A stretch of 64,000 nt of DNA from Sulfurimonas gotlandica GD1 (GTDB taxonomy: Bacteria; Campylobacterota; Campylobacteria; Campylobacterales; Sulfurimonadaceae), in assembly GCF_000242915.1 (NCBI RefSeq), contig NZ_AFRZ01000001.1:2356001-2420000 (forward strand), in the 5' to 3' direction. Positions 43,061 through 61,339 of this stretch are shown piece after piece (the stretch's first letter is position 1; every line of letters begins with the position of its first letter). Made by a program: the position numbers and the translations under genes. The notes under the pieces are model-generated. The model was not told the origin of the DNA. It searched no databases and was given only the letters and a program-made list of their open reading frames with translations.

Positions 43061-43990
43061 TTGAAAATGAAAAAAATATTTATATTTATTGTATCTATTT
43101 TACTAGCCTCAATTTTGAATGCTGGTGAACTTGATAAAAGTAAGACTTATACTATAGCTTTCGCACAAGATACTCTCAATAATGACTACAGGCTAAAACA
43201 AGTTAAAGAAGTAGAAAAAGCGCTACTTAAATACCCAAATATTCGTTTCATATACAGCGATGCAAAAGCAAGTGCTTCTATGCAGGTTAAACAGATAGAA
43301 GACTTTATTTCCCAAGGTGTTGATCTCTTAATGACCAGCCCTTATGATGAGGATTCTACAAGACAAGTCATCTCAAAAGCATATAAATCAAATATACCAG
43401 TTGTTTTGGTGAGTAGAAGGGTAAAGGGGAATGACTTTACATCTTATATCCATCCAGAAAATAGGCAAATAGCAAAAGATGCAGCAAAATATCTTGTTAA
43501 GAAGATGAACTACAAAGGAACAGTTTTACTTTTAAAAGGCGTAGCAAAAACTAATGTTGAAAGAATGAGAACAGAAGGTTTTTTTGAAGTAGTAAATAAA
43601 TATCCAAATATTAAAGTGATAGAAAGAACTGCAAACTATCTTCGTCGTGATGCAATTATAGAAGTAGATAAACTGCTAAGTGCAGGACAAAAGTTTGATG
43701 CGGTTATGTCACAGAGTGACAGCATGTTAGTCGGTGTCAGAATGGTTTTTAAAAAATATGGCATTAAACCTTCTTCGCTTGTAACTGTCGGTATAGATTA
43801 TATAAAGCCTGCTCAAGATGCCATTCGTGATGGAGAGCAAAATAGTAGTTTTGTCTACTCTCTTTGTGCTAAAGAGAGCGCTGATATTGCCATTAAGATA
43901 TTATCAGGAGAGAGTGTGGCAAAAGAGATAAAACTAGATACAAATCAGATAACAAGGAAGAATGTAGATGAAATTGAACCAATTTTTTAA
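43061..43990 (+). CDS. Periplasmic sugar-type solute-binding protein (type I)
   Basis: The 309-residue protein has a Sec signal (ending LASILNA) and the two-lobe fold of LacI/RbsB-like periplasmic binding proteins (IAFAQDTLNNDYRLKQVKEVE, DLLMTSPYDEDST, VMSQSDSMLVG). No permease or ATPase gene is nearby. It overlaps the next solute-binding gene by 23 bases and is followed by a GGDEF-EAL gene, so it may be a sensor component rather than part of a transporter. Confidence 0.85.
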   Translation: MKMKKIFIFIVSILLASILNAGELDKSKTYTIAFAQDTLNNDYRLKQVKEVEKALLKYPNIRFIYSDAKASASMQVKQIEDFISQGVDLLMTSPYDEDSTRQVISKAYKSNIPVVLVSRRVKGNDFTSYIHPENRQIAKDAAKYLVKKMNYKGTVLLLKGVAKTNVERMRTEGFFEVVNKYPNIKVIERTANYLRRDAIIEVDKLLSAGQKFDAVMSQSDSMLVGVRMVFKKYGIKPSSLVTVGIDYIKPAQDAIRDGEQNSSFVYSLCAKESADIAIKILSGESVAKEIKLDTNQITRKNVDEIEPIF

Positions 43991-44927
43991 GTACTTTTTT
44001 TCACTATTAAGTGCACTGATAGTTCTTGGTGGATGCAGTCCAAAAGATGAATCTAAACCTCTTCGTATAGGAATGAATACATGGCCAGGATATGAGCCTT
44101 TGGTCCTTGCAAAGGATTTGGGCTATTTGAGTGAAAAAACTCTTATCTCACGTCTTGACTCAGCTACTGATGTTGTAAAATCTTTTAAGAGTGATATTAT
44201 TGATATTGCCTGTTTGACACTTGATGAAGCCATCATCCTTCAAGATAATAGTGAAGATGAGATAAAGATAATTGCTATTATAGACTTCTCAACGGGTGGT
44301 GATGCAGTTATTGCCAAAAAGGATATAGCATCTATGAAAGATCTTAGAGGAAGAAAGATAGGAGTAGAGTCAAGTGCACTTGGTGCATTTATGATTTCTC
44401 GTGCTATTGACTTGACTCCTGAGCTAGATAGAGATGATTTAACTATTGTAAACATTGGTTATGAGCACCATGAAAGTGAGTTTTTAAATGGAAACATAGA
44501 TGCTGTTGTTACGTTTGAGCCTGTAAAGACGAAACTTCTTCAAAGCAATGCTCATATCATTTTTGATTCTACGCAAATCCCAGGCGAAATAGTTGATGTT
44601 ATGATAGTAAAAACAAAGATTATAAAAGAGAAGAATTTGGAGATAGTTAAGCTTTTAGAAGCTTGGTACAAATCAGTTGAGTTTTTATCCAAAAAGGAAG
44701 AAAAAAGTTTAAAGATGATGGCGGAATATGAAGGTATAAGTTATGAAGATTTTAAAATAGCTTATGATGGAATCAAAATACCATCACTAGAAGAGAATAA
44801 AGAGTTTTTTAATTCCAAATTAGAAGATACTATTAAAAAAATCGACGCTATACTTTTAGAAAAATATCTTATACGAGGTAGTGTCGATCCAAAAAAAATA
44901 TACACTACTCAGTATTTAAAAAGGTAG
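43968..44927 (+). CDS. Solute-binding lipoprotein, NMT1/SsuA-like (type II)
   Basis: The 319-residue protein has a lipobox (LIVLGGC, Cys23) and an NMT1/ThiY/SsuA-like fold (LRIGMNTWPGYEPLVLAKDLGYL, IVNIGYEHHESEFLNGNIDAVVTFEP). It would bind a small organic or sulfonate-like ligand. It overlaps the preceding binding protein by 23 bases and abuts the GGDEF-EAL gene with no space. No ABC transporter components are nearby, so a signalling role is plausible. Confidence 0.82.
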   Translation: MKLNQFFKYFFSLLSALIVLGGCSPKDESKPLRIGMNTWPGYEPLVLAKDLGYLSEKTLISRLDSATDVVKSFKSDIIDIACLTLDEAIILQDNSEDEIKIIAIIDFSTGGDAVIAKKDIASMKDLRGRKIGVESSALGAFMISRAIDLTPELDRDDLTIVNIGYEHHESEFLNGNIDAVVTFEPVKTKLLQSNAHIIFDSTQIPGEIVDVMIVKTKIIKEKNLEIVKLLEAWYKSVEFLSKKEEKSLKMMAEYEGISYEDFKIAYDGIKIPSLEENKEFFNSKLEDTIKKIDAILLEKYLIRGSVDPKKIYTTQYLKR

Positions 44928-47423
44928 TTGTGTTTGAATACTAAAGTCTCATTAAAATTTAAACTGATTTTCTACACACTGTTTTTTACTGTAGTGTCAG
45001 TACTTTTAGTCGGTTATATAAGCAACAAATATTTAGAAGAGCATTTTTATGATGATTCGAAAAATGAATTTAAAGAGTCTTTTTTAGATCTCTCAATTGA
45101 ACTTAAAAATACAGAAAAAGACATACTTGAGAGTATCGCTTTAACGTCTCAAAACAAAGAGATAATAGCTTCTATGAACCTTATTAAAAATTATGAGGAT
45201 ATAGATAGTTATGACGCATCTCTTTTTGATGAAGAGAAAAAAAGAATAGTAGATGTTCTAATCCTTGAAGGAAAACACTCCTTAAGTGATCATATATCCA
45301 TATATGACTCAAATAACCGTCTTGTCGCTTTTATTAATCATATGAACAATAATCACTTAGCTACATTTACTTCATATGTAGATTCGAAGTCTGTATATTA
45401 TTCAAAAAATGAAAATGAAGAAACATACACTCTAAGTAACTTGTCAACAAATATCAAAACCAGACTAAAAGATTCAGCTCGTATAGCAGCCTTCGATATT
45501 CAAAGTGGTGGTGTTGTTTATGAGAGAGATGGAGATATCTTAAGACTAAAAGCAAAACATGCAATTCTTAGAAAAATATCTGCAACGAAGAGAGAGTTTC
45601 TTGGCTACGTTGAGATTAGTAAACAGTTTTCTCAAAAAGATATGAATAAACTAATGTCTTCACGTATGATCATCAGTTACGACTTTAAAAACAAAACAAA
45701 TGAAGCTAAGTTTACACATAATGCACCTCTTCTGTTTTCAAAATTTAAAGCAGATGAACTTCACCTACATAATGAAAAAAACATTTTCTTTACAAGAGTA
45801 CAAGTTCCTCTGGAAAATGGTTCACTTTTTTTTAGAATCGAGACGAATAAAGAGGAGTTTGATAAGACACTAAGAAATAACAGACAAAGCCTAGTCGCAA
45901 TTTTATTTTTTATAATCATTGTAACTTTTATAACAAGTCTTGTAATAATAAATAATATGTTATCAATACCATTGAAAAAAATACTAAATGGTATTGAAAT
46001 TATCTCAAAAGGTAACTATGAAAATAGAATAGATATCACTTCTAAAGATGAACTTGGAGCGATATCTTCTCAATTTAATAATATGGCTGATGAAATTGCA
46101 AAACGTGAGACGCAGCTGGATGAATTGGCACATGTTGATCCACTGACAAAAATACCAAACAGGGTAATGTTTATTGAAACATTGGAAAAATCCATAAGTC
46201 GTGCAAAAAGATTAAATACAAAACTTGCAGTTTTCTTTTTAGACCTTGATGATTTTAAAAACGTAAATGATACACTTGGTCATTATGTAGGAGATAAGCT
46301 TCTAATAGAAATAGCTAAAAATCTCTCAATCGTGATGAGAGAGAGTGACACTATATCTAGGATAGGTGGTGATGAGTTTAACATCTTAATAGAAGATTTA
46401 GAATCTCTCTCTCACATAGGTGAAATAGCAGAAAAATTTATAAAACAGATGACTATCCCATTATATATAGAAAACAACGCGATAACAATCTCTGGTAGCA
46501 TTGGTATATCAATATATCCTGATGATGGTGAAGATACTACGACGCTTCTTAAAAATGCTGACCTTGCAATGTATAAGGCAAAAGATAATGGAAGAAACCA
46601 ATACAGTTTTTTCTCAAAAGAGCTGGAAGTATCTTTGAGTAAGCGTATAAATATGCTAAAAGAATTAAAAGAAGCAGTTAATAGAGATGAGTTTAGACTC
46701 TATTATCAACCAAAGTTCTCACTTATAGATGGATCTATAAAAAGTGCAGAAGCACTTATTAGATGGGATTCTAAAGAGTTTGGATTTGTCTCACCTGATG
46801 ATTTTATACCTCTAAGTGAAGATAGTGGCGAGATTGTTAAGATTGGAGCATGGGTTATAAAACAAGCTTGTGAGGATTTTGCCTCATGGAGTGAGCTTGG
46901 ATTGGGTATAACACAAGTTAGTGTAAATGTATCAAATGTTCAGTTTACTCGTGATGATATAGTAAAAGTACTATCAGACAATATCATAAAAAGTGGAATA
47001 TCTCCAGAGTCTATAGAAGTCGAGATTACAGAGAGTTATATGCAAGAAGATAGTGAACGAGCTCTTCAAATACTTCATGATGTTCGAAAAATTGGCGTGG
47101 ACTTGGCTGTTGATGATTTTGGAACAGGTTATTCATCTATGAGTTATCTCAAAAGATTACCTATAAACCGTTTAAAAATAGACCGCTCATTTATTGGAGA
47201 TATTCCTCATGATGTTGATGATGTTGAAATTACTAGAATAATTGTAGCTCTTGCTAAAACAATGGGTTTGGCAATAACTGCTGAGGGTATTGAGACACTT
47301 GAACAGATGCACTTCTTACAAGAGATGGGTGTTGATGAAGGTCAGGGCTATATCTGTTCTAAACCACTGCCTTACGAGCAGTTTGTTGAACTTTTAAAAA
47401 AGAAAAATAGCTGTATAGAGTAG
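44928..47423 (+). CDS. Membrane GGDEF-EAL c-di-GMP enzyme with HAMP domain
   Basis: The 831-residue protein has a helix at about 10-30, a periplasmic cache/CHASE4-like domain (to about 320), a second helix, HAMP (KKILNGIEIISKGNYENRIDI region), a GGDEF domain with intact RIGGDEF, and an EAL domain with AEALIRW, VEITES, DDFGTGYSS and AEGIETLEQ. Both catalytic sites look intact. It starts with TTG (44928, AAAAAGG four bases before; TTG 44934 is an alternative). It directly follows two solute-binding genes, which may supply its ligand input. Confidence 0.87.
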   Translation: MCLNTKVSLKFKLIFYTLFFTVVSVLLVGYISNKYLEEHFYDDSKNEFKESFLDLSIELKNTEKDILESIALTSQNKEIIASMNLIKNYEDIDSYDASLFDEEKKRIVDVLILEGKHSLSDHISIYDSNNRLVAFINHMNNNHLATFTSYVDSKSVYYSKNENEETYTLSNLSTNIKTRLKDSARIAAFDIQSGGVVYERDGDILRLKAKHAILRKISATKREFLGYVEISKQFSQKDMNKLMSSRMIISYDFKNKTNEAKFTHNAPLLFSKFKADELHLHNEKNIFFTRVQVPLENGSLFFRIETNKEEFDKTLRNNRQSLVAILFFIIIVTFITSLVIINNMLSIPLKKILNGIEIISKGNYENRIDITSKDELGAISSQFNNMADEIAKRETQLDELAHVDPLTKIPNRVMFIETLEKSISRAKRLNTKLAVFFLDLDDFKNVNDTLGHYVGDKLLIEIAKNLSIVMRESDTISRIGGDEFNILIEDLESLSHIGEIAEKFIKQMTIPLYIENNAITISGSIGISIYPDDGEDTTTLLKNADLAMYKAKDNGRNQYSFFSKELEVSLSKRINMLKELKEAVNRDEFRLYYQPKFSLIDGSIKSAEALIRWDSKEFGFVSPDDFIPLSEDSGEIVKIGAWVIKQACEDFASWSELGLGITQVSVNVSNVQFTRDDIVKVLSDNIIKSGISPESIEVEITESYMQEDSERALQILHDVRKIGVDLAVDDFGTGYSSMSYLKRLPINRLKIDRSFIGDIPHDVDDVEITRIIVALAKTMGLAITAEGIETLEQMHFLQEMGVDEGQGYICSKPLPYEQFVELLKKKNSCIE

Positions 47424-47479: not shown

Positions 47480-49903
47480 ATGAGAGTAGTAATCGTAGGT
47501 GGCGGAATCGCCGCGGTATATTTAGCAAACAATCTTAAAAAACAAGATTCGTCCTCGGATGTAGTCATTGTAAGTGATGAGAAACATCCACCTTATGACA
47601 GGATACATCTTTGTCGTCTTATCGATGAAACAGAAGATGAGAGAGGGATATCTCTACCTCTAGACCCCACAGTAAAACTAGAATTAAACCAGACCATAAA
47701 GAAAATAGATAGAGATGCTAAAAGAGTATTCTCAGATGATGCTATGTTTAGTTATGACAAGCTCATACTTGCTACAGGTTCTATTCCGATAACTCTTTTT
47801 GATATAAGTGAAGTAAAAAATGCTGCTGTATTTAGAAGTGCAGATGATTGTGACATTATTAGAACTGGCACACAAGGTAGAGAAGTAGTTATAGTTGGAA
47901 GTGGACCTATAGGTTTAGAGCTTTTAGAGACTCTAAATGATATGCCAAATATCACGAATATTACTCTACTTATCAGAGGTAAGCATCTATATTCTAAAGA
48001 CCTTTCAATAGACTCCATAAAAACAATAGAAGAGTGTTATACAAAAGATGGAAAGATAAAGATATCTTACGAAGATGAGATAGTAGATAAGATAATAGAA
48101 AATGGTGAGATAGTCTCACTTCAAACAAAAAAACTAAACATCAAAAATCCTTTTCTTATCTTTGGTACTGGTATCAAACCAAATATAGCCTCATTTAAAG
48201 ATTCACTTAAAAGCAATAAGGGAATACTGACTAACCTTTATATGCAGACAGAGGATGAGAGCATCTATGCAGTCGGAGAGTGTGCTGAAGTAGAGAAGTT
48301 TAACTTTGTAGCAGGGCATGTTAAAGAGTGTACGATGCAGGCTGATTGTGCAATTTCGCATATAGTCGGTCGTGAAGTAAAAGAGTTTGAACTTGGAGTT
48401 AGCATTGATATGTTAAAAGTCGGTGAGTTTGATCTCATAGAAGTTAACTCTCCAAAGTTTAGTAGTGATTATGAAAAGATTCTTATCACTTCCAAAGAAG
48501 ATAAGAGAATAGATGAATACTTTTTAAAAGATGACAAACTAACCAGGTTTATAGGGATAAACTCAAATGTAGATGTCGGTTATATTGAGACTCTTGTAAA
48601 TAGTGGAGAAGAGGTAGACATAAACTATCTCTATCAAAACAGGCTAATTGGTGAGAGAGGACGACTTATTTGTAGCTGTGAACATGTTTATCATCAAGAT
48701 TTAGTAGACATAGTAACTCAGACAGGTATAGGCTCATTCTCAGAACTCTCAGACTTCTCAGAAGCAGGTAGAGTCTGTGGAAGATGTAAGATGATGGTTC
48801 AAGATGTTATAAAAGATTCTCAGCATCTCATAGATCCAAATATGCCAAGAAAAACAGCCCAAGATTTAAAACGTGAACGTGAGATAGCAGAGGTTCAAAA
48901 ACGTATAGATAAGTTTAATGCCCTAAACCCTAGAAATAATCTTACAACAGATAATCTAGATGCGGCTATGAACTCCTTAGATATAGCAAAGTCAGAAGTA
49001 AACAGCTGGGTGTCCATGGTTACGGCAAATATGCAACTTCATCCAAACTTTGAGCAAGTTATAGAGGGTGCTGTTTGTGCTCTGAACAAAGTTCCTATTA
49101 TTTGGCTTGAGCTTGCTGATTGTAGCGGAAACTCCGAAGCGTTTATAAAGTCAACCAATCCGGCTATTGAAGATATTATTTTTGACTATGTTTCACTTGA
49201 TTATCATGAGCTTCTTATGAGTGCGAGTGGAGATCAGAGTGAGACTATTTTAGAAGATATCATTACAAATCAAAAGGGTGAATATATTCTTATAGTCGAA
49301 GGTGCTGTGCCACTTGCAATTGATGGAAAGTATCTTCGCATCGGACCAAAGGGTGAGACAGGAATAGACCTTCTTAAAAAGTGTGCAAAAGATGCAGCTC
49401 TTGTTATCTCAGTTGGCTCTTGTGCATTTGATGGTGGAGTAGTAGCCGCTTATCCAAATCCAACAGGAGCTGTAGGTGTTGCCCAAGCACTTCATCGTGA
49501 TGACATCATAAACCTCTCAGGATGTCCGACCAATCCTACAAATATAGTGGGAACACTTCTTTCATACTTGATGTTTGAAGAACTACCTCCGCTAGATAAG
49601 TTTAACCGTCCTCTTTGGGCTTACTCTGGACGCGTACATGATGACTGTGAAAGACGTGGTAACTATGAACTAGGCGAGTTTGTAAAAGAGTGGGGTGATG
49701 AGGGTGCTAAAAAAGGCTGGTGTCTTTTTGAGATGGGATGTAAAGGCCCATACACAAATGTAAACTGTCCGACCATGAAGTTCAACGGTGGAACAAGCTG
49801 GCCTGTTCAAGCCGGACACGGATGTATGGGTTGTGTAGAGATGGGCTTTTTTGATAAGTTTGCTAATGAGAGAAAGTATGAAGAGGAAAAAGATGACTCT
49901 TAG
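47480..49903 (+). CDS. Fusion of FAD/NAD oxidoreductase, BFD-type Fe-S domain and [NiFe]-hydrogenase small subunit
   Basis: The 807-residue protein has three parts. Residues 1-390 are a NirB/rubredoxin reductase-like pyridine nucleotide-disulfide oxidoreductase, with an FAD motif GGGIAAVYL (about 5-13) and an NAD-type GSGPIG (140-145). Residues 390-450 hold the BFD/NirB [2Fe-2S] motif C398-S-C400 ... C433-G-R-C436. Residues 530-807 match a [NiFe]-hydrogenase small subunit: C548-S-G-N551, GSC648, GC682-P, then H720, C723 and a Cys-rich tail (GWC, EMGC, NCP, GCMGC) for medial and distal clusters. No signal peptide means it is cytosolic. It could couple H2 to NAD(P) or a flavin acceptor; the large subunit is probably at 51971. 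Confidence 0.88.
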   Translation: MRVVIVGGGIAAVYLANNLKKQDSSSDVVIVSDEKHPPYDRIHLCRLIDETEDERGISLPLDPTVKLELNQTIKKIDRDAKRVFSDDAMFSYDKLILATGSIPITLFDISEVKNAAVFRSADDCDIIRTGTQGREVVIVGSGPIGLELLETLNDMPNITNITLLIRGKHLYSKDLSIDSIKTIEECYTKDGKIKISYEDEIVDKIIENGEIVSLQTKKLNIKNPFLIFGTGIKPNIASFKDSLKSNKGILTNLYMQTEDESIYAVGECAEVEKFNFVAGHVKECTMQADCAISHIVGREVKEFELGVSIDMLKVGEFDLIEVNSPKFSSDYEKILITSKEDKRIDEYFLKDDKLTRFIGINSNVDVGYIETLVNSGEEVDINYLYQNRLIGERGRLICSCEHVYHQDLVDIVTQTGIGSFSELSDFSEAGRVCGRCKMMVQDVIKDSQHLIDPNMPRKTAQDLKREREIAEVQKRIDKFNALNPRNNLTTDNLDAAMNSLDIAKSEVNSWVSMVTANMQLHPNFEQVIEGAVCALNKVPIIWLELADCSGNSEAFIKSTNPAIEDIIFDYVSLDYHELLMSASGDQSETILEDIITNQKGEYILIVEGAVPLAIDGKYLRIGPKGETGIDLLKKCAKDAALVISVGSCAFDGGVVAAYPNPTGAVGVAQALHRDDIINLSGCPTNPTNIVGTLLSYLMFEELPPLDKFNRPLWAYSGRVHDDCERRGNYELGEFVKEWGDEGAKKGWCLFEMGCKGPYTNVNCPTMKFNGGTSWPVQAGHGCMGCVEMGFFDKFANERKYEEEKDDS

Positions 49904-50259
49904 CTCTTTAAGAGTAGCTCTGCTTTCTCTTTTTTTGTAAGTTTTGAAACTACTAAATCATAAGACTCATCTATCATCGTAGTCAGTATGTTTTCTGGCA
50001 TTGTGCCGTCTAGCGTTATCGTATTCCAATGCTTTTTATTCATGTAGTAACCGGCAGTTACACACTCATAAATATCGCGATAGCCAAGAGCATCTTGAGG
50101 AAGTGATTTTAGTGTTATCTTGAGTGGTTTTTCTTGCCAAGCAACAAGGGCAAACATTTTGTTCATAACTTTAAAGACCATAGCTTCTTCGCCAAATGGA
50201 AACTCTTTTACTGAGCCATTTTTTAGAGTAAGTAATTTTTCTAGCTCTACCAAAGTCAT
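49900..50259 (-). CDS. MmcQ/YjbR family protein
   Basis: This 119-residue protein has the small YjbR/CyaY-like fold with the family pattern MVFKVMNKMFALVAWQEKPLKITLK and NKKHWNTI near the C-terminus. Such proteins may bind DNA, but the role is unknown. It overlaps the end of the hydrogenase fusion gene by four bases and lies ten bases after the SulP gene on the same strand. Confidence 0.83.
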   Translation of the reverse strand: MTLVELEKLLTLKNGSVKEFPFGEEAMVFKVMNKMFALVAWQEKPLKITLKSLPQDALGYRDIYECVTAGYYMNKKHWNTITLDGTMPENILTTMIDESYDLVVSKLTKKEKAELLLKS

Positions 50260-50269
50260 TTTCTTATCC

Positions 50270-51820
50270 TTATATATTTTTAACAGCCGAGTTCATATCA
50301 TCATAAAACTTTACGTTGTCAAAGATGCGTGTTTTGTTTAGTTTTAGTAGTTGAGTCTTGTCTTTTTCTTGTGCAAGTATTATAACTTCTATATTGTCAA
50401 TTTGTAGTTTTGAGATGAGATCTTTTAGAGTGAATATGGCAGTGATATCCATAAACGGCACATCTAAAATATCTATGATAACAATTTTAGTGTCAAGAAT
50501 TGAGTTTGTTTCTCGCTCAAAGGCAGTACTTGAGCCAAAGAAAAAAGCACCATTTATCTTGATGACTCTGACTTTTTTTTCCATTAGATTGAACTGGATA
50601 TCTGCATCTTCATGTTGGGAGTCAACCAGAGTTATTTTAGCCTCTTTAGTTATTCTGTAAACAATAAGTAGGGATGCCAGAACTATACCGACTCCAACAG
50701 CCGTGATGAGGTCAATGAAAACAGTTATTAAAAATACAACAAGCATAACACTTAAATCATTTTTAGGAGAATCTTTCCAGATAGATAAAAATTTATAGTC
50801 TAATATATCAACACCGACTTTTATTAGTATACCGGCAAGAATAGCTAGCGGTATCTTAGATGCTAATGGAGCCAAGAAAAGAACAGTGAGTAGAAGAATG
50901 AGAGAGTGAGTTATACCAGATATCTTATGAGTCCCACCACTTTTTATATTTATGACGGTTCTCATAGTGGCTCCAGCTCCAGGAAGAGAGCCTGTGAGTG
51001 CACAAATAGAGTTTCCTATGCCTTGACCAATTAGCTCTCTGTCTGGCTTGTGTTTGGTACCTGTAATGGAGTCTGCGACTATAGAAGTAAGAAGTGTGTC
51101 TATCATTCCTAAAACCGCAAGAGTAAAAGCTAAAGATATAACAGTTGTGTAGTGTTCTAAACTTAAAGTCGGCATCACAAACGAAGGTAGCGTTGCAGGA
51201 ATCTCACCTATTGTAGCAATGCTCAAGTTTAGGTAGATGCTAATGGGTGTCAGAATACTCAGCGCGATAAGAGGAGCAGGAATAATATTTGATATTTTAC
51301 TTGGTGAGAAAAACATGATAATAATCGTTGCAGTAGCAATAATAGCTGCACTTAGATTTGCATCTGTGATGTTTGATGGAAGAGTTATGAGTATGTGAAC
51401 TATGGAAGCATCACTAGTAAGCCCTAAGAAAGGATTTATCTGTAAGATGATGATAATTACACCTATGCCGCTCATAAATCCTGAAATGACAGGATATGGA
51501 ATATACTGTACAAATTTTCCTATTTTTGAAATACCAAAAATGATTTGAAAAATACCTGCAAGTAAAATTGTTGTGACTATTAAACCAATATCACTATTTA
51601 GACTTATGACTGCCGCAGCAACAACTACCGTCATAGGTCCTGTTGGTCCAGATATTTGAGATGGAGTACCACCAAAAAGTGAAGCAAAAAACCCTAGAAT
51701 AATAGCACCAAAAATACCAGCAGCAGCACCCATACCACTGGCCACTCCAAATGCCAATCCTAAAGGCAGAGCGATTACAGCGGCTGTAATACCACCAAAG
51801 AGATTTTGCTTTAGATTCAC
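50270..51820 (-). CDS. SulP family anion transporter with STAS domain
   Basis: The 516-residue protein has about 10-12 membrane helices, with the SulP motif GGTPSQISGPTGPMTVVVA, and a C-terminal STAS domain (about 410-516) with FGSSTAFERETNSI and DVPFMDITAI. Substrates in the family are sulfate, bicarbonate or other anions. Bicarbonate uptake would fit autotrophic growth but is a guess. It separates the two hydrogenase subunit genes. Confidence 0.87.
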   Translation of the reverse strand: MNLKQNLFGGITAAVIALPLGLAFGVASGMGAAAGIFGAIILGFFASLFGGTPSQISGPTGPMTVVVAAAVISLNSDIGLIVTTILLAGIFQIIFGISKIGKFVQYIPYPVISGFMSGIGVIIIILQINPFLGLTSDASIVHILITLPSNITDANLSAAIIATATIIIMFFSPSKISNIIPAPLIALSILTPISIYLNLSIATIGEIPATLPSFVMPTLSLEHYTTVISLAFTLAVLGMIDTLLTSIVADSITGTKHKPDRELIGQGIGNSICALTGSLPGAGATMRTVINIKSGGTHKISGITHSLILLLTVLFLAPLASKIPLAILAGILIKVGVDILDYKFLSIWKDSPKNDLSVMLVVFLITVFIDLITAVGVGIVLASLLIVYRITKEAKITLVDSQHEDADIQFNLMEKKVRVIKINGAFFFGSSTAFERETNSILDTKIVIIDILDVPFMDITAIFTLKDLISKLQIDNIEVIILAQEKDKTQLLKLNKTRIFDNVKFYDDMNSAVKNI

Positions 51821-51970: not shown

Positions 51971-53665
51971 ATGAAGAAAATCGTTATTGATCCGATTACA
52001 AGAATTGAAGGGCATCTGAGAGCCGAAGTAATAGTTGATGAAGATGGAGTAATACAAGAAGCTTATGTCAGCGGACAACTTTTTCGTGGTATTGAAATTA
52101 TTCTAAAGGGTCGTGATCCAAGAGATGCAGGGCTATTAGCCGGCAGGATTTGTGGAGTCTGTACAAATTCTCATTTTAGAGGAGCAGTCTCGGCGGTTGA
52201 AGATGCTTACTCTCTGGTCTTGCCAAAAAATGCTGAGATTATTAGAGATTTGATGGCAATGGCACTTTTTATTCAAGACCATGTTGTTCATTTTTACCAT
52301 CTCCATGCACTTGATTTTGTAGATGTTACAAGTGCTCTATGTGCAGATGCAAAACTCACTTCAAAAGAGGCACACAAATATTCAGACAAGCCATTTAGAA
52401 ACTCTCACTCACACTACGAAGAGACTATAAAAAAACTGCAAAACTTTGTAGATGCAGGGAAGCTCGGTCCATTTTCAAACGGCTACTGGGGACACAGTGA
52501 CTATAAGCTCACTCCTGAGCAAAATCTGGTTATGATATCTCACTATCTTGAAGCTCTGAAGTTTCAAACAAAAATTTCTAAAGCTGTAGCCATTTTTGGA
52601 GGTAAGACTCCGCATCCACAGAGCATAGTCGTCGGTGGTATTACCAGTGTTGCTGATATGTTAAATCCTCAAAGACTAAATGACTACCTCTTTGTGATGA
52701 AAGAAGCAAAAGAGTTTATAGACCGTGCATACCTTCCAGATGCCAAGATGCTCGCAACTGCTTACAGAGATGAGATAAAAGCAGCAGTTGGCCGTGCAAA
52801 CGGTAACTTTATGTCAGTAGGCGGTTATGAGTTTGAAGGCGAGCAGAGACTTTTTTGCAATGGCGTAATATATGCACATAACTTTGAAAACATAGAAGAG
52901 TTTGATGAAAACAAAGTTTCAGAAGAGGTTGACCGTGCTTGGTACAAGGTGAACGGCAAAGACAGAGAGGGTGTGGGGTATAAAGACAATGAAGTGTTTT
53001 ATACTGATTTAAATGAAGACGGAAGTCTTAAAACTGCAAAAAATGATGATAAATATTCTTGGATAAAAGCTCCTAGATATGATGGCAAAGTCATGGAGAC
53101 GGGACCGCTTGCTCGTGTTCTAATTAGCTATAAAAAAGATAACAAACTCATAAAATCTTTTGTAGATGAATTTTTGGAAGCTACTGATTTGGAGCTTATA
53201 GACTTATCTAGTACAGTGGGAAGAAATTCGGCTAGAGCTATAGAGACAGGATACATCTGTGAGTATATTTTTAAACTTGTCTCACGTCTCATACAAAACA
53301 TTAAATACTACGACACAGATACCTGGACTAAGTATGATTTTGAAAAATTAGACAAGGACGCAAAAGGTAGAGTTTTTCTTGAAGTACCGCGTGGTACGCT
53401 CTCTCATTTTGTAAATATTAAAGATCAAAAAATAGATAATTATTCAGTAATAGCTCCAACAACATGGAATGCTACTCCTAAAAATTTTGATGGAGTAAGA
53501 GGAGCTTATGAAGAAGCACTAATTGGTGTAAAGATGCAAGATCCATCTAAGCCGCTTGAGGTTTTAAGAGTCCTTCACTCATTTGATCCATGTCTTGCTT
53601 GTGCAGTTCACATAATCGATACTAAGGGGAAAGAACTTAGTAGATATAAGATAAAAAGTTTGTAA
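51971..53665 (+). CDS. [NiFe]-hydrogenase large subunit
   Basis: The 564-residue catalytic subunit carries the Ni-Fe site cysteines C61-G-V-C64 (RICGVCTNSH) and C541-L-A-C544 (DPCLACAVH). The C-terminal 17 residues after H547 would be removed by a maturation endopeptidase. The DHVVHFYHLHALDFVDV stretch is typical of group 1/2 uptake enzymes rather than group 4. The partner small subunit is the FAD fusion at 47480. No maturation (hyp) or protease gene is in the window. The exact HydDB group cannot be set by eye. Confidence 0.93.
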   Translation: MKKIVIDPITRIEGHLRAEVIVDEDGVIQEAYVSGQLFRGIEIILKGRDPRDAGLLAGRICGVCTNSHFRGAVSAVEDAYSLVLPKNAEIIRDLMAMALFIQDHVVHFYHLHALDFVDVTSALCADAKLTSKEAHKYSDKPFRNSHSHYEETIKKLQNFVDAGKLGPFSNGYWGHSDYKLTPEQNLVMISHYLEALKFQTKISKAVAIFGGKTPHPQSIVVGGITSVADMLNPQRLNDYLFVMKEAKEFIDRAYLPDAKMLATAYRDEIKAAVGRANGNFMSVGGYEFEGEQRLFCNGVIYAHNFENIEEFDENKVSEEVDRAWYKVNGKDREGVGYKDNEVFYTDLNEDGSLKTAKNDDKYSWIKAPRYDGKVMETGPLARVLISYKKDNKLIKSFVDEFLEATDLELIDLSSTVGRNSARAIETGYICEYIFKLVSRLIQNIKYYDTDTWTKYDFEKLDKDAKGRVFLEVPRGTLSHFVNIKDQKIDNYSVIAPTTWNATPKNFDGVRGAYEEALIGVKMQDPSKPLEVLRVLHSFDPCLACAVHIIDTKGKELSRYKIKSL

Positions 53666-57867: not shown

Positions 57868-59637
57868 ATGCGAATGTATGATGTTTTGATTATTTCTCCC
57901 TTAATATTTGCACTAATGGTTATGCTAAACAGGTATGTCATGCAAAACACAATGGCAATTGTTTTTGTTAGCATCTTAGCTATTGTAAGCCTTAGTCATC
58001 TGTTCACTACAATTGACGTTTTACAAGCTTCACTGCCGCATCTCTTTCATAATATATTTATGTTTATTGATTTTATTTTACTAGCATACTTTCTCTGGCA
58101 GGGTATAGCCAAAAAACACAGCTTAGTTACTATGTTTGCCGTAATCCAGATGCTACTTTACACTTATGTTATATCTCTATCTCCAACTCTGCTCTCTAGT
58201 GATATTTTAGTCGATAAAGTATCTTCTATAATGTACTTAGTCATAAATATAGTCGGCGGAGTTATTATTATATACGCTCTTGAATATATTAAAAGTGAAG
58301 AGTTTAGTAAGTTTAAAAAGAGTGGATTTATTGCAATGTTATTTCTCTTTTTAAGTGTGATGAACTTTATTGTCTCTACTAACAACATAGAAATATTTTT
58401 TATGCTCTTTGAATTGACAACTCTCTTTTCTTATCTTCTAATAGCTTATCGCAGTGATGAACTCTCAAACAACAACGCTTTAAAAGCACTATGGATGAAC
58501 CAGATAGGCGGAGTGGCAATACTTCTAGCTTTAGTCGTTTCCATAACCAAGTATGACACTCTTTATTTTGACATACTCATAAAAAACATAGATTCTACCT
58601 ACTTACTCCCCATAGCTCTTTTAGCGATAGCAGGATTTGTTAAGGGGGCTAGCATCCCGTTTGATAAATGGTTACTTGGAGCTATGGTAGCACCGACACC
58701 AGTTAGTGCCATACTTCATAGTGCGACGATGGTAAAGATTGCTCCGTATCTAATGCTAAAGCTTTCTCCTGCCATTATAAGTAGCGGATTTGCATCTATA
58801 ACTATAACTCTCATAGGAACATTTGTTTTCTTCGCAGCATCTATGCTCGCTCTGAGCAAAGACTACTTCAAAGAGATACTTGGTCTCTCTACCATTGCTC
58901 TTCTTGGTCTCATGATGGCTCTAGCGGCTATAGGGAGTGAAGAATCCATAACAGCTTGTCTGGTTCTCATAGTCTTTCACGCTATCTCAAAAGCACTTCT
59001 TTTTTTTCAAGCCGGAATCTTAGAAAAAGTAAATCATCTGAAATATGTAAAAGAGATAAATGGACTGGTAAATCACTCGCCGATATTAGTCTTTTTTATC
59101 ATCATAGGTTTTGCATCTCTGACACTTCCTCCATTTGGAGCTTTCATAGCAAAGTTTATGGCCATAGAGTCAATAGCAACAGAGATAACAAGAAACCCTC
59201 TATATGTTCTAGCTCTTATATTCATAGCTCTTGGAAGTGTCTTTTTAACACTTCTCTACTTTAAAGTCGTTACAAAACTCTTTGCTAAAGATGTTAGTTC
59301 TAAAGAAGACAACCATACTCCTCTGCCAAAACTCTACATGATTCCATCAAGTATATTAGTATCTCTTCTTATCATAGGCATACTTGTAAGTTATGATATG
59401 AAACTCTTAAGCTCAACGGAGATAATAGTCCCATCACTACTAATAGCCATAGTCCCCATACTCTTCGTATCTGTGCTGTTTAAAAAAGCCCATAGAGTAA
59501 AAGAGTATCACTGTGGGGAAAAGGATGAGTTAGAGTTAAGTATGTACTATTTTGCTGTATCAGATGGTTATAAAAAAATCATAACTGCTGTGGCTATACT
59601 CCTTATACTTATCTTGGTTGTAGGAGCGGTGTTATGA
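57868..59637 (+). CDS. HyfB/NuoL-like proton-antiporter subunit
   Basis: This 589-residue membrane protein has about 14 helices and the Proton_antipo_M signature (KGASIPFDKWLLGAMVAPTPVSAILHSATMVK-type; key parts WLLGAM, APTPVSA and HSATMVK). It matches HyfB/HycC/NuoL subunits that pump ions in group 4 hydrogenases and complex I. The four-base overlap with the next gene shows an operon. It begins a four-gene membrane module. Confidence 0.88.
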   Translation: MRMYDVLIISPLIFALMVMLNRYVMQNTMAIVFVSILAIVSLSHLFTTIDVLQASLPHLFHNIFMFIDFILLAYFLWQGIAKKHSLVTMFAVIQMLLYTYVISLSPTLLSSDILVDKVSSIMYLVINIVGGVIIIYALEYIKSEEFSKFKKSGFIAMLFLFLSVMNFIVSTNNIEIFFMLFELTTLFSYLLIAYRSDELSNNNALKALWMNQIGGVAILLALVVSITKYDTLYFDILIKNIDSTYLLPIALLAIAGFVKGASIPFDKWLLGAMVAPTPVSAILHSATMVKIAPYLMLKLSPAIISSGFASITITLIGTFVFFAASMLALSKDYFKEILGLSTIALLGLMMALAAIGSEESITACLVLIVFHAISKALLFFQAGILEKVNHLKYVKEINGLVNHSPILVFFIIIGFASLTLPPFGAFIAKFMAIESIATEITRNPLYVLALIFIALGSVFLTLLYFKVVTKLFAKDVSSKEDNHTPLPKLYMIPSSILVSLLIIGILVSYDMKLLSSTEIIVPSLLIAIVPILFVSVLFKKAHRVKEYHCGEKDELELSMYYFAVSDGYKKIITAVAILLILILVVGAVL

Positions 59638-60458
59638 TAGAGATTATTCTAATTATATTTGCTCCACTAATCGGTGGTTTGATTTACGGTTTTGAGAGAG
59701 TTGTTCGTGCTCGGATGCAAAATCGTCAAGGGCCTCCTATTTTACAGCCTTTTTATGACATGTACAAACTCCTGGGAAAACAAGCGTTCATAGTAAATCC
59801 GTATCATTCCATCTTGGGAATTATGCACTTTGTTACACTATGGGTAGTTGTTGCTTTTGTCATACTTGGAGAGAATCTTTTATATGTCGTTTTCTTGCAT
59901 CTACTCTCATCTATCTTTATAGTTTTAACAGGCTTTAGTGTCAGGTCAATCTACTCACATATAGGGGCAAATAGAGAACTGCTTTCTATAATCGCTTATG
60001 AGCCTATACTCATCATGCTTGCAGTTGGATTTTTCATGCTCAATGGAACTTTTGATATAGATGCCATAAGAAGTAGTAGTTCAGAACTTGCATCTATGTT
60101 TTTTCTGTTTTTAGCTTTCTTACTTGTTATCCCTGTAAAACTGAAAAAGTCTCCATTTGATGCAGCAGAAGCTCATCAGGAAATAGTCGGTGGTGTTGAG
60201 GTAGAGTTTAGCGGAGTCTTTTTTGAGTTCTTATACATGGCTAAGTGGTTGGAGTATGTCTTTATCTATTCACTGCTTATGCTCTTTGCTGGTAATAGCA
60301 TACTACTCGGAGCAGTTCTGTTTGTCGTAGTATTTTTACTTGTAAACTTAGTAGATAACTCAACTGCCAGAGTAAAGATAAACCACCTGATTAAAATAGT
60401 TCTTAGCATCGGACTGACACTTGGCATGCTAAACCTCATAGGACTCTCTTATGTTTAG
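59634..60458 (+). CDS. HyfC/NuoH-like membrane subunit
   Basis: The 274-residue protein has eight hydrophobic segments with the NuoH-like GFERVVRARMQNRQGPP motif near the N-terminus and KKSPFDAAEAHQEIVGGVEVEFSG (key residues FDAAEAHQEIVGG, EFSG) in the centre. In complex I this subunit lies at the quinone site and membrane entry. It overlaps the previous gene by four bases and the next by eight. Confidence 0.9.
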   Translation: MIEIILIIFAPLIGGLIYGFERVVRARMQNRQGPPILQPFYDMYKLLGKQAFIVNPYHSILGIMHFVTLWVVVAFVILGENLLYVVFLHLLSSIFIVLTGFSVRSIYSHIGANRELLSIIAYEPILIMLAVGFFMLNGTFDIDAIRSSSSELASMFFLFLAFLLVIPVKLKKSPFDAAEAHQEIVGGVEVEFSGVFFEFLYMAKWLEYVFIYSLLMLFAGNSILLGAVLFVVVFLLVNLVDNSTARVKINHLIKIVLSIGLTLGMLNLIGLSYV

Positions 60459-61005
60459 CCTGAAAAAGTACAGAAAAAAATCACCGTGGATACTTCACTA
60501 TAATGCGGGAAGTTGTAACGGATGCGACATAGAAATATTAGCGGCTCTTGGCCCGAAATATGACCTAGAGAGGTTTGGAGTCATAAACACAGGAAACCCA
60601 AAACAATCAGACGTATTTTTAGTGACAGGACCTGTTACATATAGAAGTAGAGAGAGACTTGTAGAGTTATATATTCAGATGCCAGAGCCAAAAGTTGTGG
60701 TTGCATTTGGAAGCTGTACATGTACTGGTGGTGTCTTTAGAGATATGTACAATGTTGAAGACGGCATAGATAGATATATACCTGTTGATGTTTATGTCCC
60801 TGGATGTGCAGCATCTCCAGAACTTTTGATAGACGGGCTTGTTAAAGCTTTAGATATTTTAAAAGAGAAGACAAAAGAGATGGAAAAACCGTTTAAACTC
60901 TTTAGAGAGTCAGCATCTGAGGATGGCATCGTTAGTCGTAGAGATAACGCACTTAGAGTAGGGGAACCCTCAACCAAGGAGGATAAAGAAGATGATAAAG
61001 ATTGA
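60451..61005 (+). CDS. NuoB/HycG-like Fe-S subunit
   Basis: The 184-residue protein has four cysteine ligands of an N2-type [4Fe-4S] cluster: GSCNGCDIEI (two Cys), FGSCTCTGG, and VPGCAASPELL. The usual PGCPPSPE is changed to PGCAASPE. It matches HycG/HyfI subunits of group 4 hydrogenases. A hydrophilic acidic tail follows. It overlaps the NuoC-like gene by 14 bases. Confidence 0.9.
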   Translation: MFSLKKYRKKSPWILHYNAGSCNGCDIEILAALGPKYDLERFGVINTGNPKQSDVFLVTGPVTYRSRERLVELYIQMPEPKVVVAFGSCTCTGGVFRDMYNVEDGIDRYIPVDVYVPGCAASPELLIDGLVKALDILKEKTKEMEKPFKLFRESASEDGIVSRRDNALRVGEPSTKEDKEDDKD

Positions 61006-61339
61006 AGTCTCGTTAGAGAACGTAAGAGATAAGATAAAAGAGTTTTACAAAGAAAAAGAGTGGCATTTTTTGACTCTAAACGGTGTTGCACTTGAAGATA
61101 ATAAGGTCGAGATTCAGTGGATATTTTCAAAGTATGAGGCTATGGATGAGGTAGTTGTATTCTATGCGAAGATAAAGTACTCTGAAATCGTGCCTTCCAT
61201 AGTAGACATAATCCCATCTGCGATAATCTCTCAACGTGAGATAGTTGATATGTTTGGTGTTGAAGTAGAGGGAAGTGAAAAAGGACTCTACCTTGATGAA
61301 GACTCAGAGCTACGACCTTTATCATGTACAGTAAATTAA
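60992..61339 (+). CDS. NuoC/HycE-N-like 30-kDa subunit
   Basis: The 115-residue protein matches the core of the 30-kDa subunit, with FYAKIKYSEIVPSIVDIIPSAIISQREIVDMFGVEVEG; key parts are QREIVDMFGVE and the preceding beta-strand. It ends soon after (RPLSCTVN). In HycE and NuoCD this domain leads into the large (49-kDa) subunit, but here a stop follows and the next gene is an opposite-strand TetR. No large-subunit sequence was seen after it. Confidence 0.85.
   Translation: MIKIEVSLENVRDKIKEFYKEKEWHFLTLNGVALEDNKVEIQWIFSKYEAMDEVVVFYAKIKYSEIVPSIVDIIPSAIISQREIVDMFGVEVEGSEKGLYLDEDSELRPLSCTVN

What the first reader, a model, noticed from the sequence alone, without database searches (positions are those of the whole stretch)
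47480..49903. FAD/NAD oxidoreductase and BFD Fe-S domain fused to a [NiFe]-hydrogenase small subunit
One 807-residue cytosolic protein joins a NirB/rubredoxin reductase-like flavoprotein (FAD and NAD motifs), a CxC...CxxC BFD-type domain and a full hydrogenase small subunit. Normally the small subunit is separate and NAD coupling uses HoxFU-type diaphorase proteins. The fusion would give a direct wire from the Ni-Fe site to a flavin and perhaps to NAD(P)H, ferredoxin or a bifurcating acceptor.
Basis: partly seen in the sequence, partly recalled or inferred. Interest (0 to 1): 0.75.

Follow-up and report, generated by a model that had tools for sequence, protein, structure and literature searches.

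The report
Hydrogenase fused to a flavoprotein reductase
A real, conserved one-piece protein in sulfur- and hydrogen-using bacteria joins a flavoprotein to a hydrogenase subunit and probably passes electrons from hydrogen gas to NAD(P) inside the cell; the fusion itself was already in print, but its function has not been measured as far as I could find.

Summary
One intact 807-residue ORF joins a rubredoxin-reductase/NirB-type flavoprotein (1-390), a BFD [2Fe-2S] domain (396-445), a helical linker and a complete group-1 [NiFe]-hydrogenase small subunit (539-795). It is no artefact: 38 of 397 Campylobacterota genomes carry it intact, and in those genomes the flavoprotein half appears only in this fusion, apart from one broken copy. 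It is not new: Hansen and Perner (2016, PMC4744846) report it in Thiomicrospira crunogena, Sulfurimonas autotrophica and others, and suspected decayed Fe-S sites.

I find conservation instead: 15 Fe-S ligand positions are invariant in 88 of 88 rows (82 distinct). The linker is a fossil Tat export leader without its twin arginines (103 of 103), and the membrane anchor is gone where it could be tested. So an exported respiratory hydrogenase was recaptured for the cytosol. The nucleotide site lacks the NAD-type acidic residue and has Arg166 (86 of 88), which suits NADP(H). A group 4 hydrogenase lies nearby in 21 of 81 loci. Best reading: a cytosolic H2:NAD(P)+ oxidoreductase feeding biosynthesis. 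Activity is untested; XCL-2, which has it, was inactive.

The parts
47480..49903 (+). Whole fusion gene, 807 aa
   Evidence: 110 loci read, 97 distinct proteins
47480..48649 (+). FAD/NAD(P) flavoprotein part, residues 1-390 (rubredoxin/ferredoxin reductase fold)
   Evidence: Pyr_redox_2; AF2 pLDDT mostly about 90; best structural matches Z 35.1 and 34.7
47975..47977 (+). Arg166 of the nucleotide-binding site
   Evidence: R in 86 of 88 rows, position 165 never acidic in 88; the family profile scores T176R-bearing BphA4 mutants above wild type
48665..48814 (+). BFD-type [2Fe-2S] domain, residues 396-445, Cys 398, 400, 433, 436
   Evidence: Fer2_BFD; four Cys in 88 of 88 rows
48884..49093 (+). 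Linker, residues 469-538: fossil Tat export leader, twin arginines lost, predicted helical
   Evidence: HMM of 27 exported leaders hits 103 of 103 linkers parsed (90 distinct); no RR; helices
49094..49864 (+). [NiFe]-hydrogenase small subunit, residues 539-795, ligands for three Fe-S clusters
49130..49132 (+). Asn551, in place of the second proximal-cluster Cys
   Evidence: N in 88 of 88 rows; also in 17 of 27 exported relatives sampled
51971..53665 (+). Partner large subunit, 564 aa, Ni-Fe site motifs RICGVC and DPCLAC
   Evidence: PF00374, 1.8e-195; motifs in relatives
49900..51820 (-). YjbR-like and SulP/STAS genes lying between the two subunit genes; absent at this place in the closest relative (L005)
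57868..61339 (+). First four genes of a group 4 hydrogenase module (ND5-like, NuoH-like, NuoB-like, NuoC-like); its large subunit lies outside the window, at about 66808 in window coordinates. Association with the fusion is inferred from gene neighbourhood.

Best explanation
It is the small-subunit half of a cytosolic [NiFe] hydrogenase that oxidises H2 and reduces NAD(P)+, more likely NADP+ than NAD+. Path: Ni-Fe site in the large subunit (51971-53665), proximal cluster (3 Cys and Asn), medial cluster (3 Cys), distal cluster (His and 3 Cys), then the BFD [2Fe-2S] cluster, FAD, and NAD(P)+. It arose when a NirB/rubredoxin-reductase-type flavoprotein with a BFD domain was joined in front of an exported group 1b-type small subunit; the Tat leader decayed into a helical linker and the membrane anchor was lost. 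Its product would serve CO2 fixation by the reductive TCA cycle, perhaps together with the group 4 hydrogenase beside it, which could make reduced ferredoxin. Shown by sequence: the fusion, conserved ligands, fossil leader, lost anchor (in the tails parsed), purifying selection, neighbourhood. Inferred: location of the mature enzyme, electron path, acceptor, direction and physiological role.
For: Fusion in 38 of 397 Campylobacterota and 6 of 62 genomes of a gammaproteobacterial order. Fe-S ligand columns invariant in 88 of 88 rows, 82 distinct. dN/dS 0.048-0.098 in the 9 of 11 pairs that were not identical (five of the nine have dS above 1, so rough). Leader fossil: 103 of 103 linkers parsed at 17.1-37.7 bits, best of 2163 shuffled or reversed controls 8.1; no RR. 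Exported small subunits end in a more hydrophobic tail (15 of 27 parsed, 19-residue hydropathy maximum 0.77 to 2.06), the fusions in 16-25 residues, maximum -0.36 (61 of 110 parsed). Large-subunit motifs RICGVC in 67 of 68, DPC[LI]AC in 60 of 68. Arg166 in 86 of 88 and no acidic residue at 165; T176R-bearing BphA4 mutants score 90.7-91.6 bits, wild type 87.0 (mutations from the titles). No Complex1_51K in this genome; ATP citrate lyase present. In G126 it is the only large subunit found, with a HycI-type protease, HypB-, HypC- and HypD-type genes nearby (group 4 large subunits would escape that search). Group 4 module in 21 of 81 loci, on either side. S. [quoted passage not shown]
Against: I found no measured activity for any member. 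T. crunogena XCL-2, which has the fusion, consumed no H2 and had no active fraction, soluble included; SP-41, TH-55, L-12 and MA-3 showed activity in the membrane fraction, not what a soluble enzyme predicts (PMC4744846 section 13). The S. autotrophica result fits an inactive enzyme as well. AF2 places the end of the small subunit poorly (718-807 mostly under pLDDT 50), so cluster distances are unknown. Arg166 also occurs in relatives named CoA-disulfide reductase and ferredoxin-NAD(+) reductase (alignments), so NADP preference is only suggested. In this genome the two subunit genes are separated. Of 32 loci with over 8 kb on both sides only 10 have the group 4 module. Tree support for the fusions as one clade is weak (79/68 and 41).
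Confidence: 0.55

Rival explanations
1. H2-dependent reductase of a sulfur substrate: the flavoprotein passes electrons to persulfide, polysulfide or CoA disulfide in the cytosol rather than to NAD(P).
For: Many host records bear names of sulfur-oxidising genera. CoA-disulfide and persulfide reductases are among profile and fold matches. Cys45 and Cys284 are invariant in 88 of 88 rows.
Against: Cys45 aligns with the Ser of the PLSK motif of a ferredoxin reductase, three residues after the redox Cys of CoA-disulfide reductase (my reading of the alignments). The highest structural matches are ferredoxin/rubredoxin reductases, though CoA-disulfide reductases follow within Z 5. The nucleotide motif is intact.
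Confidence: 0.13
2. The reaction runs the other way in life: NAD(P)H-driven H2 release as a redox valve, or a bidirectional enzyme.
For: Nothing in the sequence fixes direction; NAD(P)-linked hydrogenases are generally reversible (recalled).
Against: NADPH is a weak H2 donor by potential (general knowledge), and the genome has an autotrophy marker. No direct data.
Confidence: 0.12
3. H2 sensor: the enzyme reports H2 through its flavin or by signalling, not by metabolism.
For: A GGDEF/EAL protein lies directly upstream here; the proximal site CxGN is also seen in 7 leaderless small subunits that I take for group 2.
Against: The GGDEF/EAL protein clusters with no gene of the other 80 loci (many maps are cut by contig ends). 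In G126 the fusion's large subunit is the only group 1/2-type one found, so there would be no other such enzyme to regulate. The tree separates it from the leaderless ones.
Confidence: 0.07
4. Flavin-based electron bifurcation to ferredoxin and NAD(P).
For: A neighbouring group 4 module could use reduced ferredoxin; H2 to NADP+ has spare energy (general knowledge).
Against: The domain searches show one flavoprotein, one [2Fe-2S] domain and no ferredoxin or second flavin domain in the protein.
Confidence: 0.04
5. Decayed or inactive enzyme, as Hansen and Perner considered.
For: XCL-2 inactive; one copy, G324, is broken; subunit genes separated in the window.
Against: Ligands invariant in 88 of 88 rows, dN/dS 0.05-0.10, large-subunit motifs kept in most rows, maturation genes beside it in G126/L072. 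CxGN also occurs in exported relatives.
Confidence: 0.06

Closest known systems
Flavoprotein-fused small subunit (813 aa) of Thiomicrospira/Hydrogenovibrio crunogena XCL-2 and SP-41, also in Sulfurimonas autotrophica, Sulfuricurvum kujiense, Sulfurovum sp. AR, Arcobacter nitrofigilis, Thioalkalimicrobium microaerophilum
   Same: Same fusion as described in print: pyridine nucleotide-disulfide oxidoreductase domain on a small subunit without Tat signal (PMC4744846; size in PMC6501319). My loci include a record named Sulfuricurvum kujiense (L108) and a Thiomicrorhabdus (L113).
   Different: The passages and sections I read do not mention the BFD domain, the fossil leader, the Asn shared with exported relatives, or NADP. 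In the window the two subunit genes are separated.
Exported, membrane-anchored group 1b-type [NiFe] hydrogenases of Campylobacterota
   Same: Small subunits 41-49% identical in the rows listed, large subunits 43-49% over full length; shared leader ancestry
   Different: No export signal, no anchor tail, flavoprotein in front; separate side of the trees. Class 1b of the exported ones is my label after the papers.
HoxFUYH-type NAD-linked hydrogenase (group 3d)
   Same: Proposed reaction, H2 to NAD(P)+, in the cytosol
   Different: Different flavoprotein; no Complex1_51K in this genome
NirB-family / rubredoxin and ferredoxin reductases, and the FAD subunit of Aromatoleum aldehyde oxidoreductase (8c0z chain E)
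   Same: Fold and nucleotide sites; like 8c0z_E, such a flavoprotein works as the NAD-side module of a larger redox enzyme (the latter recalled)
   Different: Here fused to a hydrogenase subunit

Membership tests
[NiFe] hydrogenase, group 1 small subunit | Small-subunit domains with ligands for three Fe-S clusters | tested here: met
   hydA 359.7 bits over cut-off 179.5; ligands invariant in 88 of 88 rows, second proximal Cys is Asn
[NiFe] hydrogenase, group 1 small subunit | Groups with group 1 rather than leaderless group 2-type small subunits | tested here: met
   100/100 split from the 7 CNGN rows; the group names are mine, no HydDB reference set was available
Exported (Tat) group 1b hydrogenase | Twin-arginine leader | tested here: not met
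   No RR in 103 of 103 linkers, though the leader is recognisable
Exported (Tat) group 1b hydrogenase | C-terminal membrane anchor on the small subunit | tested here: not met
   Tails of 16-25 hydrophilic residues in the 61 of 110 fusions parsed; the window protein ends 22 residues after its last Cys
Exported (Tat) group 1b hydrogenase | HydDB class 1b of the large subunit | not tested
   Taken from PMC4744846 and PMC6501319 for relatives
Hox-type NAD-linked hydrogenase (3d) | HoxF/NuoF diaphorase (Complex1_51K) | tested here: not met
   0 matches in the own genome; 9 of 14 control genomes ring
NirB/rubredoxin-reductase-type flavoprotein with BFD domain | Two nucleotide-binding folds and a CxC...CxxC BFD domain | tested here: met
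NAD(P)-reducing hydrogenase | H2-dependent NAD(P)+ reduction | not testable with these tools
   Needs an assay
Functional [NiFe] hydrogenase | Ni-Fe site cysteines in the large subunit | tested here: met
   Both in the window protein; RICGVC in 67 of 68 and DPC[LI]AC in 60 of 68 partner large subunits; the misses were not examined

The most novel reading that the evidence does not exclude
An exported respiratory hydrogenase was recaptured for the cytosol by capping its leader with a flavoprotein, the dead leader being kept as a structural linker. The result is a further kind of NAD(P)-linked [NiFe] hydrogenase, with a NirB-type instead of a HoxFU-type diaphorase, which with the neighbouring group 4 hydrogenase forms a dedicated module that turns H2 into NADPH and reduced ferredoxin for the reductive TCA cycle.
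Probability: 0.35. Interest if true: 0.72.

Novelty: new member of a known kind. Interest (0 to 1): 0.5.

Why it matters
Surveys of Sulfurimonas list its group I hydrogenases as uptake enzymes, and the passages I saw do not set this type apart (PMC4584964, PMC7952632). If it is a cytosolic H2:NAD(P)+ enzyme, energy budgets of these vent and sediment autotrophs change: H2 could feed biosynthesis directly, without reverse electron transport. It also gives a reason to re-test XCL-2, since the sites once thought decayed are conserved. The fossil leader is a clear case of an export signal turned into a linker.

Tried and rejected
Assembly or frameshift artefact: rejected. Split homologues: none intact at E 1e-35 in 397 genomes. 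G324 has two pieces of the flavoprotein about 2.8 kb apart, the first with a TGA inside; three opposite-strand ORFs lie between, two of them transposase-like by eye, not by a family search.

Asn551 as a sign of decay, or as peculiar to this family: dropped, because 17 of 27 exported small subunits sampled have it and 10 have Cys. Cys45 as a CoA-disulfide-reductase-type redox Cys: not supported by alignment; its role and that of Cys284 stay unexplained.

Direct distance test of the wire: not possible, as the tool gives no coordinates and the small subunit folds poorly without the large one. BFD and small-subunit folds were not searched on their own; the structural list is filled by the flavoprotein, so their absence there means nothing.

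NADP preference of the BphA4 mutants: one search listed ten papers, none holding the term BphA4, so that these mutants favour NADPH is recalled.

Literature on function: searches (open-licence papers only). Of the papers I opened only PMC4744846 and PMC6501319 describe the fusion. Scott et al. 2006 is not held and is cited through PMC4744846. Seen: PMC4744846 (passages and section 13), PMC6501319, PMC12286921, PMC10052474, PMC4584964, PMC7952632 and PMC12943458 (passages only); all other listed papers only as search listings.

Rows left out: A2 holds 88 of 110 fusion loci, chosen by hand with truncated and most near-identical ones omitted; 82 of its rows are distinct. Linkers: 103 of 110 (90 distinct); L062, L063, L064, L069, L075, L078 and L080 did not fit the pattern or are truncated. 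SSU tree: 35 of 110 fusions and 34 of 35 other small subunits; L131 fell out as its proximal motif differs. LSU tree: 31 of 68 fusion partners. Tails: 61 of 110 fusions and 15 of 27 exported ones fit the strict pattern. One search kept 80 of 143 relatives, found by two patterns, one at the start of the flavoprotein and one at the start of the small subunit, so it is biased to fusions; one search is the fairer test. Searches scored only the best 2 to 4 candidates in most genomes.

Full report
What is there. The window holds one open frame of 807 codons at 47480-49903. Pfam families above cut-off place a FAD/NAD(P) flavoprotein at 1-286, a BFD-type [2Fe-2S] domain at 396-445 and a hydrogenase small subunit at 548-795; NCBIfam hydA covers 491-796. 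The best solved relatives of the two halves are uptake-hydrogenase small subunits and reductase-type flavoproteins. An AlphaFold2 model from 88 rows has mean pLDDT 78.6, pTM 0.61; the flavoprotein is mostly near 90, the linker is four helices, the end of the small subunit is mostly below 50. The flavoprotein matches ferredoxin and rubredoxin reductases at Z 33-35.

How widespread. Of 397 Campylobacterota genomes, 38 have the full fusion and 2 a partial one (my count of its rows), 29 of the 40 in the window's own family. With the flavoprotein half alone as query, 39 of 397 genomes match at E 1e-35 or better; 38 are in one frame of 806 codons or more and the other, G324, is broken, with two ORFs that look by eye like a transposase pair in the gap. 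Outside the phylum, 6 of 62 genomes of the order around Thiomicrorhabdus carry it; a spread of 398 genomes over that phylum gave only the centre itself at E 1e-60. In the small-subunit tree the two gammaproteobacterial rows lie inside the Campylobacterota fusions (100/100 for the pair, 94/87 for the next fork), which suggests transfer from Campylobacterota.

Already in print. Hansen and Perner 2016 (PMC4744846) report that the T. crunogena XCL-2 small subunit is 813 residues with a pyridine nucleotide-disulfide oxidoreductase domain and no Tat signal, citing Scott et al. 2006, and that five other strains, among them Sulfurimonas autotrophica, have it too. They found the subgroup-specific Fe-S binding sites not conserved, and no activity in XCL-2. 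The 2019 genome paper (PMC6501319, passages) finds the same size of protein in SP-41 and calls the enzyme group 1b; its large-subunit gene is expressed during H2 consumption there, together with a second hydrogenase. I found no measurement of an acceptor (searches listed under Tried and rejected).

Conserved wiring. In 88 of 88 rows (82 distinct) the proximal site is Cys548, Asn551, Cys648, Cys682; the distal site His720, Cys723, Cys748, Cys754; the medial site Cys763, Cys782, Cys785 (Pro775 in 87 of 88); the BFD site Cys398, 400, 433, 436 (the cluster names follow the known small-subunit pattern, recalled). Asn for the second proximal Cys is not decay: of 27 exported small subunits sampled, 17 have CxGN and 10 CxGC, and 7 leaderless ones that I take for group 2 have CxGN. 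Nei-Gojobori dN/dS is 0.048-0.098 in nine pairs, five of them with dS above 1 and so rough; two further pairs were identical.

The fossil leader. Exported relatives carry a long leader with RR-D/E-F and, six residues after the first Arg, a Trp. A profile of 27 such leaders finds all 103 parsed fusion linkers at 17.1-37.7 bits; the best of 2163 shuffled or reversed linkers reaches 8.1. Trp is invariant in both sets, while RR is in no linker. Exported small subunits also end in a hydrophobic segment (15 of 27 parsed, two of them weak); the fusions that could be parsed (61 of 110) end 16-25 hydrophilic residues after the last cluster Cys. I conclude that the small subunit descends from an exported, anchored enzyme that was turned into a cytosolic one. 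An unfused small subunit in L131 has also lost its RR, so loss of the signal does not need the fusion.

Partner and setting. In 68 of 81 loci a large subunit lies within three genes downstream, next door in 66; in G177 the partner is on another contig, at 76% identity to the window's. Large-subunit and small-subunit trees both put the fusion rows on one side, with weak support (79/68 and 41). In G126, whose contig length and position coincide with L072 (Sulfurimonas sp. STE_9), the large-subunit search finds one large subunit only, that of the fusion (it would miss group 4, as it does in the own genome), and a HycI-type protease, HypB-, HypC- and HypD-type genes follow, after a restriction-modification pair. 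In Thiomicrorhabdus L113 maturation genes flank it on both sides. In 21 of 81 loci, window included, genes of a group 4 module are present, downstream in 10 and upstream in 11; of 32 loci with more than 8 kb on both sides, 10. Its NuoD-like subunit keeps both CxxC Ni motifs in 17 of 18 (the other is cut short). In the window four of its genes are at 57868-61339, and the large subunit is outside, at genome position 2422808.

Acceptor. Position 165 is V, I, S, L, A, G or N in 88 of 88 rows, and 166 is Arg in 86. The family profile scores BphA4 mutants bearing T176R at 90.7-91.6 bits and the wild type at 87.0 (mutations from the titles), as expected if Arg166 stands at T176 and residue 165 at Glu175; that Glu175 fixes NADH and these mutants favour NADPH is recalled. 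Two relatives with the same Arg are named CoA-disulfide reductase and ferredoxin-NAD(+) reductase, so this is a lean, not a proof. The genome has no NuoF/HoxF match and has ATP citrate lyase of the reductive TCA cycle. A direct H2 to NADPH route would therefore be useful; this is inference. S. [quoted passage not shown]

Verdict. Real, conserved, under selection, most likely a cytosolic H2:NAD(P)+ oxidoreductase; the fusion is published, the mechanism is open and testable.

Noticed in passing
57868-61339 and genome position 2422808 (outside the window): A group 4 hydrogenase operon that is contiguous in relatives such as L035 is interrupted here after its NuoC-like gene by TetR, YceI-like, pirin-like and CDGSH-like genes (the last named by eye); its large subunit, 87% identical to that of L035, lies about 5.5 kb further on.
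   Followed up: partly
49900-51820: SulP/STAS transporter and YjbR-like genes on the opposite strand separate the two hydrogenase subunit genes; in the closest relative, L005, the large subunit follows directly.
   Followed up: partly
47612-47614 and 48329-48331: Cys45 and Cys284 of the flavoprotein are invariant in 88 of 88 rows without a known role.
   Followed up: partly
43061-47423: A binding-protein-like ORF (by eye), an NMT1-like protein and a HAMP-GGDEF-EAL protein sit between the phospholipase A1-like gene and the fusion; in 8 of the other 80 loci the fusion follows that gene directly.
   Followed up: no
L131:388-1497: Unfused small subunit of another Campylobacterota genome with a leader that lacks RR and with Glu at the second proximal Cys position.
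   Followed up: no
L138:213-2774: Three opposite-strand ORFs, two transposase-like by eye, between the two pieces of the broken fusion gene in G324.
   Followed up: partly
L072:14254-16946: AccI-type restriction endonuclease and an Eco57I-type methylase between the large subunit and the maturation genes.
   Followed up: no
22163-24790: Nitrous-oxide-reductase-like protein with a cytochrome c domain at its end, in a cluster of NosD-like, ferredoxin and ABC genes (cluster read by eye).
   Followed up: no
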